64,000 bases of DNA from the NCBI RefSeq assembly GCF_035593305.1, contig NZ_CP141615.1:434001-498000 (forward strand). The letters are read 5' to 3'. The notes under the pieces are model-generated. The model was not told where the DNA came from, did no database searches, and saw only the letters and a program-made list of their open reading frames with translations. The DNA comes from Limnochorda sp. L945t (GTDB lineage: Bacteria > Bacillota > Limnochordia > Limnochordales > Geochordaceae). Position 1 is the stretch's first letter, and each line of letters opens with the position of its first letter. A program made the translations under genes and the position numbers. Of this stretch, positions 15,703-22,533 are shown one piece after another.

Positions 15703-16338
15703 TCAGACGGGGCAGTCCCACAGCGGATACCAGCGGGACGGGTCCGGCTCGATGGGCAGCTCCCGCGAGAGCGTGGCGCTTGCGTGCAGCTCGCCGCTCT
15801 CGTAGCGCCCGTCGGCCGGACCCTTGCCCGGGCCTTTGGGCACGAACGGGTAGAAGCGTCCCCGCTTGTAGTTGTAGATGAGGTAAATCCGCTCAGGGGC
15901 CGTGCTCTCGCTTCCCATCCCCGCCATGCCGCGGACGGCGTCGGCCAGCCGGAACCGGAAGACCGCCGACAGGATCTGGGTACCGAACCCCTTCTCCTCC
16001 AACGTATCGGCCGCCATGTGGACGAGCGTCACGAGATCCTCGAACTCGGGGTCCTCGGCGATCATCCAGGTGTACCCGAAGCTGTCCCGCTGGAGCTCGA
16101 CGCGGCTCTTGGTCTCCTCGGCCCCCAGGCGCACCAGCTCGGCCAGCTCCTGCTGGGCGCTCGCGTAGTCGGCGGTCACCACCGGCTTGAGGCAGATACC
16201 CGCTCGCCCTTGCGGGATCCAACCCAGCTCCTGCTCGAGCGTCGTGCGCGCGGTGGAAAGAGCGAAGAGCTTCTCCGGCTTCGCTTGCACCAGGCGCGGG
16301 CGGCCCATCAGGGCGTCGAGCCACTGGCGAAGGCCCAT
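15703..16338 (-). CDS. pspAB: PspA-associated protein PspAB
   Basis: 211 residues, soluble, no signal. The N-terminal GLRQWLDALMGRPRLVQAKPEKLFALSTA and later QRDSFGYTWMIAEDPEFEDLV and ERIYLIYNYKRGRFYPFVP follow the PspAB family, whose genes neighbour pspA and htpX. It lies 31 bp downstream of htpX on the same strand, so the pair is likely an operon, convergent with pspA-pspAA. Function unknown beyond association with Psp-type envelope stress genes. Confidence 0.8.
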   Translation of the reverse strand: MGLRQWLDALMGRPRLVQAKPEKLFALSTARTTLEQELGWIPQGRAGICLKPVVTADYASAQQELAELVRLGAEETKSRVELQRDSFGYTWMIAEDPEFEDLVTLVHMAADTLEEKGFGTQILSAVFRFRLADAVRGMAGMGSESTAPERIYLIYNYKRGRFYPFVPKGPGKGPADGRYESGELHASATLSRELPIEPDPSRWYPLWDCPV

Positions 16339-18833: not shown

Positions 18834-19586
18834 ATGGCCGAGGCCTGGATCCACGAGCCGAGGGTGACGCTCCTGGCGGTCACCCAGTTCACGCCCCCCT
18901 CCCACATCGAGTGGGAGACCGATACCGACAACCCGGCCCAGCAGCTCATCGAGTTCGCAGGCAGGCTGTGCTACCGCTCCTTCCACAACCCGAGCGGGCG
19001 CGCCAACGCCGAGTACATCGGCCACCTCCTGGCGCAGGGGCACCTCTCCGTCATCGAGCACGCCAGCGCCAGCTTCCTCATCGAGGGCATCTCTCGCTCC
19101 TGTTCGCACGAGATCGTGCGCCATCGCCACTTCAGCTACAGCCAGGTCAGCCAGCGGTTCGTCAACGAGGCCGAGGCCCGCATGGTGCTCCCGCCCGCGC
19201 TCGAAGGCGACCCCGAGGCGCAAGCCATCGCCGAGAGCGTGACCCGGGCGTCCAAGGAAGCCTACGCGCGATTGGTGGAACGGCTGCGGGCCCGCTACGC
19301 CCACGTCGACGACCCGTCGCTGCGCCGCAAACTCGCCCGCCAGGCGGCTCGCTCGGTGCTGCCCAACGCCACCGAGACGGCCCTGGTCATGACGGGCAAC
19401 TTCCGCGCCTGGCGCCACTTCGTGCGCATGCGGGCGAGCGAGCACGCCGAAGCAGAGATCCGGCGGGTGGCCATCGCCGTTCTCAAGATCCTTCAGGAGC
19501 AGGCGCCCGCGGTCTTCGGCGACTTCACCATCCGCCGCCACGACGACGGCTCGGAGGTGGCCGAGCCGGGCTATGCCTACGAGTGA
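18834..19586 (+). CDS. thyX: Flavin-dependent thymidylate synthase ThyX
   Basis: 250 residues. Makes dTMP from dUMP with FAD and methylene-THF. The ThyX signature RHRHFSYSQVSQRF (RHRxxSxxxxSxR) is near residue 96, and the C-terminal FRAWRHFVRMRASEHAEAEIR completes the FAD/dUMP site. ATG 18834 follows GAGGAAGGAAGG. No thyA is in the window. The 3' end overlaps the radical SAM gene by 14 bp. Confidence 0.96.
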   Translation: MAEAWIHEPRVTLLAVTQFTPPSHIEWETDTDNPAQQLIEFAGRLCYRSFHNPSGRANAEYIGHLLAQGHLSVIEHASASFLIEGISRSCSHEIVRHRHFSYSQVSQRFVNEAEARMVLPPALEGDPEAQAIAESVTRASKEAYARLVERLRARYAHVDDPSLRRKLARQAARSVLPNATETALVMTGNFRAWRHFVRMRASEHAEAEIRRVAIAVLKILQEQAPAVFGDFTIRRHDDGSEVAEPGYAYE

Positions 19587-20754
19587 GCCGCTGCCGCGGG
19601 GCAAGGTGCTGCTCCGGGACGACCCGCTGCCCCGGGGGCCCTGGGCCCGCCTGGAAAGCGATCACGCCATCGTGGGCGAGGGAAGCCGGCGGCTTTTCAC
19701 CTTCGACCTGGAGGGGCGGCTGCTGGAGGCCTTCGTCGACGGGGTCGGGTACCGGCGAGGGCTCGACAATCGTTTCCTGGAGCGCCGGCGCCTGCCCGGC
19801 GCTCCAGGGCTCTCCCGGCGGTTGCGGCGCCACCTGAGCGCAGCCGAAGCCCGAGACGTGGTCGACCTGGCGTGCCGGACCGCTGCCCGAGCCCGAGAGG
19901 GAGGCTACCCGGCGGTGCCCGCCCTCGACTTCGACGCGCTCGAGGACGACGCCAGGCGCTTTGCGGCGGTTTACCGGCCCATCGGGATCCTGCCGCCCGA
20001 CCAGTACCTCTCGATCGTCGTGCAGCTGACCTCGGGATGCTGGTACAACCGGTGCACCTTCTGCACCTTCTACCGGGACCGGCGCTTCGAGGTCCGCTCC
20101 CCGGAGGCGTTGCGCCGCCACATCCAGGAGGTGAAGGCCTTTTTCGGGGCCGGCCTCCTGCGCCGCCACACCGTCTTCCTGGGTGACGCCAACGCGCTGG
20201 TCCTGCCGGCCGCGCGCCTGGTCGACGCCCTGGCGGCCGTGCGGGAGGCGCTGGACGGCCGTGAGGTGTTCGGTTTCCTGGACGCCTTCAGCGGGAGGCG
20301 CAAGCAGGCTCCCCAGTGGGCCGAACTGGGCGAGGCCGGCCTGCGGCGCGTCTACGTAGGGGCCGAGTCGGGCAGCGACGGCGTGCTGCGGTTCCTCGAC
20401 AAGCCCGGGACGGCCGCCGACGTCCTGGCGAACGTGCGCGCCATGAAGGAGGGCGGCATCGGGGTGGGGCTCATCCTGCTCCTGGGAGCGGGCGGCCGCG
20501 CATTCGCGCAAGAGCACGTGCGCCAGAGCATCGCGCTGGTCAACGCCGCCGGCCTCGGCCGGGGCGACCAGCTGCTCCTCTCGCCGCTCGTCATACCGCA
20601 ACAGGCGCCATACGCTCGCCTGGCGGCGCAGGCCGGGATCGAGCCGCTCAGCCCGGCCGAAGTGCGCCAGCAGGCCGAGGCCATCCTGTCGGGCGTACGG
20701 CTCGGACGAGGCGCCCGGTGGTCGTACTACTTCGTCGAGGAGTTCTTGTACTGA
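19573..20754 (+). CDS. Radical SAM protein with CX4CX2C cluster motif
   Basis: 393 residues, ATG start inside the thyX 3' end. An N-terminal region of about 140 residues precedes a radical SAM barrel with TSGCWYNRCTFCTFYRD: Cys156, Cys161 and Cys164, i.e. CX4CX2C and not CX3CX2C. Other radical SAM (Elp3-like) features are YVGAESGSDGVLRFLDKPG, GIGVGLILLLGAGG and RGDQLLLSPL. No substrate domain such as B12, TRAM or SPASM is recognisable, and no C-terminal extra cysteines. The overlap with thyX suggests co-translation; the substrate is unknown. Confidence 0.85.
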   Translation: MPTSEPLPRGKVLLRDDPLPRGPWARLESDHAIVGEGSRRLFTFDLEGRLLEAFVDGVGYRRGLDNRFLERRRLPGAPGLSRRLRRHLSAAEARDVVDLACRTAARAREGGYPAVPALDFDALEDDARRFAAVYRPIGILPPDQYLSIVVQLTSGCWYNRCTFCTFYRDRRFEVRSPEALRRHIQEVKAFFGAGLLRRHTVFLGDANALVLPAARLVDALAAVREALDGREVFGFLDAFSGRRKQAPQWAELGEAGLRRVYVGAESGSDGVLRFLDKPGTAADVLANVRAMKEGGIGVGLILLLGAGGRAFAQEHVRQSIALVNAAGLGRGDQLLLSPLVIPQQAPYARLAAQAGIEPLSPAEVRQQAEAILSGVRLGRGARWSYYFVEEFLY

Positions 20755-20868: not shown

Positions 20869-22533
20869 ATGCGCAGCGACGTCATCAAGCGGGGCATCGA
20901 CCGGGCGCCCCACCGCAGCCTCCTGCGGGCCGCAGGGGTTTCGGAGCGGGACTTCGACCGCCCGTTCATCGGCATCGTCAACTCGTACGCGGACATCGTG
21001 CCCGGGCACGTGCATCTGCAGGAGTTCGCCAGGCTGATCAAGGAGGCGGTGCGGGAGGCAGGGGGCGTGCCCTTCGAGTTCAACACGATTGCCGTCGACG
21101 ACGGCATCGCGATGGGCCACGTCGGGATGCGCTACTCGCTGGCGAGCCGGGAGCTCATCGCCGACTCGGTCGAGACCATGGTGGCGGCCCACTGGTTCGA
21201 CGGGATCGTCTGCATCCCCAACTGCGACAAGGTCGTCCCCGGGATGCTGATGGCCGCGGCACGGCTCAACATCCCCACGATCTTCGTCAGCGGCGGCCCG
21301 ATGGCGGCGGGGAGGCTCGACGGCCGGGCCATCGACCTCATCTCGGTCTTCGAGGGCGTGGGGGCCGTGCAGGCCGGCCGCATCAGCGCCGACGAGCTCT
21401 ACCGCATCGAGGCGGCCGCCTGCCCGAGCTGTGGCTCGTGCTCGGGCATGTTCACTGCCAACTCCATGAACTGTCTCTCCGAGGCGCTGGGCGTGGCGCT
21501 GCCCGGCAACGGCACGGCCCTGGCCCGCACCGCCGAACGCGAGGACCTGGCCCGCCGGGCCGCCCGGCGTATCGTGGAGCTGGTCGAGCAGGACGTCAAG
21601 TTTCTCGACATCGTCGACGCCGAGTCGCTGGACAACGCCTTCGCGCTGGACATGGCCATGGGCGGGAGCACCAACACCGTGCTCCACGCCCTGGCCCTGG
21701 CTCACGAGGCGGGCATCGACTACCCGCTGGAGCGGCTCAACCGGCTCGCCGACCGGGTGCCGCACCTCGCCAAGGTGAGCCCGGCTTCGCGCTGGCACAT
21801 GGAGGACGTGCACCGGGCCGGCGGCATCCCCGCCATCCTCAAGGAGCTTTCCCGCATCCCGGGCCTGCTCCACCGGGATCGCCCGACGGTGGACGGCCGC
21901 ACCATCGGGCAGATTGCCGACGCTGCCGAGATCCGTGACCCCGAGGTGATCCGGCCGCTGGAGCGGGCGCACAGCCCGACCGGCGGGCTGGCCGTCTTGT
22001 GGGGCAACCTGGCGCCCCACGGGGCGCTCATCAAGACGGGAGCGGTCGAGCCGGGGATCGACGGGCACGAGGGCCCGGCCATCGTGTTCGACGGCGAGCA
22101 GGAGGCCCTGGACGGCATCAAAGCCGGTAAGGTGCGCCCGGGCCACGTGGTGGTCATCCGCTACGAGGGCCCGCGGGGCGGACCCGGAATGCCGGAGATG
22201 CTGGCCCCCACCTCGGCCATCGTGGGGATGGGGCTGGGGACCAGGGTCGCGCTGGTGACGGATGGGCGGTTTTCGGGCGGCACGCGGGGGATCTGCGTGG
22301 GCCACGTGTCGCCCGAGGCGGCGGAGGGAGGGCCGCTGGCGCTGGTCCGGGACGGGGATCCGATCCGGGTCGACCTGCGGGAGCGCCGGCTGGAGATCCT
22401 CGTCTCCCACGACGAGCTGGAGCGTCGACGTGCCCGCTGGGAGCCCCCGGCGCCCCGTATCACGCGGGGGTGGCTGGGGCGCTACGTGCGGATGGTCACC
22501 TCGGCCAGCACCGGAGCCGTGCTTCGGGCATGA
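20869..22533 (+). CDS. ilvD: Dihydroxy-acid dehydratase IlvD
   Basis: 554 residues; Fe-S enzyme that dehydrates 2,3-dihydroxy acids to 2-oxo acids in valine, isoleucine and pantothenate synthesis. Cluster cysteines are seen in [12 protein letters not shown] and [19 protein letters not shown], with [19 protein letters not shown] and [19 protein letters not shown]. Length is typical (550-570). The start ATG 20869 lies 114 bp after the radical SAM gene. No other ilv gene is adjacent. Confidence 0.96.

What the first reader, a model, noticed from the sequence alone, without database searches (positions are those of the whole stretch)
19573..20754. Radical SAM protein with CX4CX2C spacing, translationally coupled to thyX
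The cluster motif reads C-W-Y-N-R-C-T-F-C (Cys156, 161, 164), one residue longer than the canonical CX3CX2C, in an otherwise ordinary Elp3-like barrel. Its start lies inside thyX. Nonstandard spacings are known in a few radical SAM families, and the thyX link suggests a nucleotide or folate-related substrate.
Basis: partly seen in the sequence, partly recalled or inferred. Interest (0 to 1): 0.5.

Follow-up and report, generated by a model that had tools for sequence, protein, structure and literature searches.

The report
Uncharacterised radical SAM enzyme beside thyX
A bacterial gene next to a thymidylate synthase gene encodes an uncharacterised radical SAM enzyme whose slightly stretched iron-sulphur cysteine motif is a shared family trait already known elsewhere, so the finding is real but ordinary.

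Summary
The + strand ORF 19573-20754 (393 aa) is a radical SAM protein with C156-x4-C161-x2-C164, and its ATG lies inside thyX (18834-19586; 14 nt shared). The spacing is an inherited trait of a large uncharacterised clade. All 20 class-level sequences, 25 of 25 phylum loci, 7 of 7 plasmid-record homologues and 23 of 24 more distant ORFs carry CX4CX2C; one distant relative has CX3CX2C. The other 13 radical SAM proteins of this genome are CX3CX2C. CX4CX2C is in print (GenD1), and OxsB, solved by crystallography, shows it in our alignment. The thyX link is local: 7 of 21 genomes that hold the gene have it within about 1.4 kb, 11 have a Thy1-family gene elsewhere, and 3 have none detected. A nucleotide or folate substrate is therefore weakly supported. 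The best reading is an active, single-cluster radical SAM enzyme with an N-terminal beta domain (no significant Pfam or Foldseek match), acting on an unknown substrate. In three Deinococcus records the homologue follows a globin gene beside a divergent Rrf2 regulator, an unexplained lead. New member of a known kind; low interest.

The parts
19573..20754 (+). Radical SAM protein, 393 aa, stop included
   Evidence: AlphaFold2 model pLDDT 89.8
20038..20064 (+). CX4CX2C cluster motif CWYNRCTFC, Cys156/161/164
   Evidence: the three Cys are the only invariant cysteines in alignment A1 of 17 sequences
19630..19899 (+). N-terminal beta domain, residues about 20-109 (seven strands and a helix)
   Evidence: no Pfam match to the window's own stretch; best PDB Foldseek E 0.2
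18834..19586 (+). thyX, FAD-dependent thymidylate synthase
   Evidence: PF02511 E 4e-58; TIGR02170 over its cut-off
19573..19586 (+). 14-nt overlap of the radical SAM start with the end of thyX
20869..22533 (+). ilvD, dihydroxy-acid dehydratase, next gene downstream on the same strand (neighbour, not shown to be functionally linked)
   Evidence: PF00920 E 1.2e-137; the same cluster also lies downstream of the gene in G064

Best explanation
The gene encodes a catalytically competent radical SAM enzyme of an uncharacterised family. Cys156, Cys161 and Cys164 bind one site-differentiated [4Fe-4S] cluster, SAM binds its open iron, and the 5'-deoxyadenosyl radical abstracts hydrogen from an unidentified substrate held between the barrel and the N-terminal beta domain. 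The extra residue between the first two cysteines is an inherited feature of the clade and leaves the core chemistry unchanged. Shown: sequence, motif conservation, fold prediction, gene overlap and patchy thyX linkage. Inferred: cluster binding, SAM cleavage, substrate site and the silence of the extra residue. In this family of bacteria the gene is translationally coupled to thyX (inferred from the overlap) without being a dedicated ThyX partner.
For: PF04055 over cut-off. CX4CX2C in 20 of 20 class-level sequences, 25 of 25 phylum loci L066-L090 and 7 of 7 plasmid-record homologues L091-L097, and 23 of 24 ORFs in 20 further regions. Invariant core around it: PPDxY 141-145, QxTxGCxxNxCxFCxFY, FLxD 202-205, GxExG 263-267, GxGG 305-308. 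The model is confident (pLDDT 89.8, pTM 0.87) and matches radical SAM enzymes such as MgmA (Z 19.3, rmsd 2.7, 225 aligned) and MiaB (Z 18.4). OxsB, solved with SAM bound (5ul4), aligns with CDYSRCTFC, also CX4CX2C. Only three cysteines are invariant, so no auxiliary cluster is expected. Linkage to a Thy1 gene in 7 of 21 genomes only.
Against: No biochemical data. The cluster was not modelled. No curated NCBIfam family is reached over its cut-off by the window protein or by 7 homologues, so no substrate can be transferred. One distant relative lacks the extra residue (L127). The overlap with thyX is kept in 4 of 4 family members, and in the sister family f2 thyX is again on the same strand one gene away. 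That is more linkage than chance would be expected to give and could hint at a shared role.
Confidence: 0.75

Rival explanations
1. The enzyme works with ThyX on a nucleotide or folate, for instance modifying a pyrimidine or a folate made or used beside thymidylate synthesis.
For: 14-nt overlap with thyX; overlapping starts in 4 of 4 family genomes. In f2 genomes thyX lies one gene away on the same strand while other neighbours differ. 7 of 21 genomes linked.
Against: 11 of 21 have the Thy1 gene far away or on another contig and 3 have none found, two of those with ThyA. Neighbours in other families are ABC exporters, two-component genes, malate dehydrogenase and a small multidrug transporter, with no folate or nucleotide theme.
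Confidence: 0.12
2. The family acts in a response to nitric oxide or oxygen, as its Deinococcus gene neighbours suggest.
For: In 3 of 3 Deinococcus plasmid records the homologue directly follows a globin gene (flavohemoprotein hmpA twice, group III truncated hemoglobin once), with a divergent Rrf2 regulator.
Against: No homologue of the Deinococcus globins, Rrf2 or SufS in 23 neighbourhood loci from 20 genomes. PF01152 globin in 5 of 20 genomes, always on another contig; none in the window's genome.
Confidence: 0.15
3. The extra residue alters the cluster and gives the enzyme non-standard chemistry.
For: The spacing is nearly strictly kept across divergent subfamilies, so it may be under selection.
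Against: OxsB with the same spacing in our alignment was solved with SAM bound (5ul4). GenD1 with the same spacing is an active cobalamin-dependent radical SAM methyltransferase (PMC4340712, passages).
Confidence: 0.04

Closest known systems
OxsB (PDB 5ul2, 5ul3, 5ul4)
   Same: Best PDB sequence match to the family profile (E 6.7e-8); CX4CX2C in the alignment; radical SAM barrel
   Different: 744 aa and cobalamin-dependent; the aligned part is the radical SAM core only; our protein has no B12 domain by Pfam
GenD1 (compared in its paper with GenK and Sis14)
   Same: Cx4Cx2C motif stated in print (PMC4340712, passages)
   Different: Cobalamin-dependent C-methyltransferase of gentamicin biosynthesis; not aligned here
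MgmA (PDB 9ccb)
   Same: Nearest fold, Z 19.3, 225 aligned residues, 16% identity
   Different: CX3CX2C (GCPGNCTFC); methylates methyl-coenzyme M reductase
Radical SAM proteins of Deinococcus radiodurans, D. ficus and D. wulumuqiensis (WP_063653089.1, WP_244940407.1, WP_275891779.1)
   Same: Long-form homologues with CX4CX2C
   Different: Gene neighbours are a globin and an Rrf2 regulator instead of thyX; annotated only as radical SAM protein

Membership tests
Radical SAM superfamily (PF04055) | Profile match over the curated cut-off | tested here: met
   54 bits against 29.5
Radical SAM superfamily (PF04055) | Three-cysteine cluster motif, CX3CX2C or a known variant | tested here: met
   CX4CX2C, invariant in A1; variant in print for GenD1
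Radical SAM superfamily (PF04055) | Partial TIM-barrel fold | tested here: met
   Model aligns to many radical SAM structures at Z 14.7-19.3
Radical SAM superfamily (PF04055) | [4Fe-4S] cluster and reductive SAM cleavage | not testable with these tools
   Needs purified protein
Cobalamin-dependent radical SAM enzymes (OxsB/GenD1 type) | N-terminal Rossmann B12-binding domain | tested here: not met
   No B12 domain in Pfam; the N-terminal domain is modelled as seven strands and one helix. A different cobalamin site is not excluded
Elp3 | Match to the curated Elp3 model TIGR01211 | tested here: not met
   No TIGR01211 row at E <= 1 for the window protein; Elp3 structures match only among many radical SAM barrels
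Any curated NCBIfam radical SAM family | Score over the family cut-off | tested here: not met
   11 families listed, best 25.6 bits against a cut-off of 600

The most novel reading that the evidence does not exclude
This is one branch of a large, unstudied clade of CX4CX2C radical SAM enzymes (at least three length classes), in which the long form with its N-terminal beta domain repairs or replaces something damaged by NO or oxygen. That would explain its place behind globins in Deinococcus and, in another lineage, its coupling to the flavin-dependent thymidylate synthase.
Probability: 0.08. Interest if true: 0.5.

Novelty: new member of a known kind. Interest (0 to 1): 0.2.

Why it matters
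It removes a possible false lead: CX4CX2C next to thyX is not a new chemistry signal. It also defines a coherent, conserved and uncurated radical SAM family with an N-terminal domain that gave no significant match here, and with a Deinococcus member whose gene neighbours offer a testable hypothesis.

Tried and rejected
A thyX search with the window's own ThyX protein (34 of 72 genomes) left 11 of the 20 gene-bearing genomes of the class with no ThyX. The Pfam family search found divergent, longer Thy1 proteins in 8 of those 11, so the first count was dropped.

A shared ABC-transporter neighbour in 9 loci looked like conserved context. Pfam showed different kinds of ABC subunits joined by their ATPase domain, so it was dropped, except that f2 and f3 do carry paired ABC exporters beside the gene.

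A run of same-strand ORFs upstream in G185 looked like an operon. Three of the five had no Pfam match, and the two nearest the gene read as spurious frames (my judgement by eye).

Linkage to histidine kinases in f5 and f6 was noted but is of two unlike architectures.

The N-terminal domain folded alone gave no significant Foldseek match in the PDB (best E 0.2). This does not show a new fold; only Foldseek was run on it.

Literature: 'radical SAM' with 'CX4CX2C' gave 4 papers, of which passages of 2 were read. 'radical SAM' with 'thyX' gave 7 papers, listing only; none was opened. Passages of PMC13331322 and PMC8992657 were read. Searches with CxxxxCxxC, with noncanonical spacing, with Rrf2/flavohemoglobin, and with a D. 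radiodurans locus tag recalled from memory (DRA0132, possibly wrong) gave 0 papers. 'Deinococcus, radical SAM, flavohemoprotein' gave 1 paper, listing only. Listings were otherwise not opened.

The tree of 56 rows was picked with a CX4CX2C regular expression, so it cannot test the spacing. One of 57 intended rows (L005) was lost to the expression, and the long-form clade had support 80/78 beside a long outgroup branch; it is not used as proof of monophyly.

Full report
What is there. The window lies in a 3.31 Mb one-contig genome, 99% complete, and a named relative with a 97% identical protein is a Limnochordaceae MAG. The + strand ORF 19573-20754 encodes 393 residues with CWYNRCTFC at 156-164, i.e. 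CX4CX2C. Pfam identifies it as Radical_SAM, E 2.8e-14. NCBIfam lists only sub-threshold matches, the best being the PhpK family at 25.6 bits against a cut-off of 600. Codon-position GC and third-position-biased divergence support coding. The gene begins 11 nt before the stop codon of thyX (18834-19586), so 14 nt are shared. Overlapping starts exist in 4 of 4 genomes of the same family, two of them one species. The next gene downstream on the same strand is ilvD.

Is the spacing conserved? The genome has 14 radical SAM matches; 13 are CX3CX2C and only this one is CX4CX2C. In the class, 20 of 72 genomes hold a homologue. I aligned the window protein and 19 relatives (two of them from broken contigs of G006; the same-species genome G062 left out); all 20 carry CxxN[RKQ]CxFC. 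In the phylum, 87 of 299 sampled genomes match the family profile at 1e-15. Of these, 25 loci (L066-L090) were read for spacing and 25 of 25 are CX4CX2C; so are 7 of 7 plasmid-record homologues, from Deinococcus (3), Vibrio, Acetoanaerobium, Fusobacterium and Persicobacter. To avoid looking only at the best matches I fetched 20 regions, mostly weaker or partial matches. Of 24 ORFs there that match the profile, 22 were CX4CX2C by pattern and one more (L128, GCTHHCCKFC) can be read so. One (L127, 482 aa, GCLHKCAFC), which also has a PPD and an FLGD motif, is CX3CX2C. The extra residue is thus old and nearly fixed in a clade with at least three length classes (about 300 aa, about 400 aa, and the long form of about 390 aa with the N-terminal beta domain). 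An even sample of 398 phylum genomes found the long form at 1e-60 in 8, of which 7 belong to the class.

Is the spacing new? No. GenD1 is reported with Cx4Cx2C and compared there with GenK and Sis14 (PMC4340712, passages). A 2011 text names CX3CX2C or CX4CX2C as the radical SAM signature (PMC3087415, passages). A 2022 review says exceptions to the spacing are not unusual (PMC8992657, passages). OxsB, the best PDB sequence match, aligns as CDYSRCTFC; entry 5ul4 has SAM bound.

Structure. AlphaFold2 from 17 sequences gives pLDDT 89.8. Nearest folds are MgmA (Z 19.3, rmsd 2.7, 225 aligned) and MiaB (Z 18.4); viperin, RlmN, Elp3 and others follow. No Rossmann B12 domain is seen. Residues about 20-109 form seven strands and a helix, also when folded alone (pLDDT 90.5). 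The window's own stretch has no Pfam match, with four weak single-member matches among 18 members, and Foldseek found nothing below E 0.2. Invariant residues outside the cluster motif include Y134, the PPDxY motif, D205, D237, K277, H315, S337 and Y386; they are candidates for SAM and substrate contacts (inference).

The thyX link. Of 21 genomes that hold the long form (20 in the class and G185), 18 have a Thy1-family gene. In 7 (four of family f1, three of f2) it is within about 1.4 kb on the same strand: directly upstream in f1, and one peptidase gene downstream in f2. In 11 it is far off or on another contig. In 3 none was found, and 2 of those have ThyA. The two linked families share no other neighbour in windows of up to 19 kb apart from an ABC-transporter cluster that joins unlike subunits, so the linkage is probably inherited and not pure chance (inference), but the enzyme clearly does not need it. 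Other families show other neighbours.

The Deinococcus lead. In D. radiodurans and D. wulumuqiensis the homologue follows hmpA, and in D. ficus a truncated hemoglobin, each with a divergent Rrf2 regulator. No homologues of these genes lie near the gene in 23 neighbourhood loci from 20 genomes, and PF01152 globins, present in 5 of 20 genomes, are on other contigs. It is an unexplained lead, not a conclusion.

Verdict. A genuine, probably active radical SAM enzyme of an uncharacterised family with a known spacing variant. The thyX inference is weak. Function beyond SAM-dependent radical formation is not determined here.

Noticed in passing
L091 4528-4551 (Deinococcus radiodurans, upstream of hmpA): Perfect inverted repeat with 8-base arms (AAAGTGGA / TCCACTTT) and an 8-base spacer, 35 bases before the hmpA start and between it and the divergent Rrf2-family gene; could be the regulator's operator (read by eye).
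   Followed up: no
G001, G002, G003, G005, G006 (Thy1 matches): Thy1-family proteins in open frames of 515-557 aa with two Thy1 matches each; their function as thymidylate synthases is unclear.
   Followed up: no
L108 3974-4807 (Peptoclostridium acidaminophilum plasmid): A short CX4CX2C radical SAM gene between yqeB and an XdhC/CoxI-family gene, in a run of selenium and molybdenum cofactor genes.
   Followed up: no
L123 833-7314 (G331): Four CX4CX2C radical SAM ORFs within 6.5 kb of one genome.
   Followed up: no
L054, L055, L059 and L102 (families f5 and f6): Genes beside the radical SAM gene encode sensor histidine kinases (HisKA_3 type or GAF type) and, in f5, a LuxR-type response regulator.
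   Followed up: partly
window 15703-16338 (-): PspAB (PspA-associated protein B) gene, PF22742 at 220 bits.
   Followed up: no
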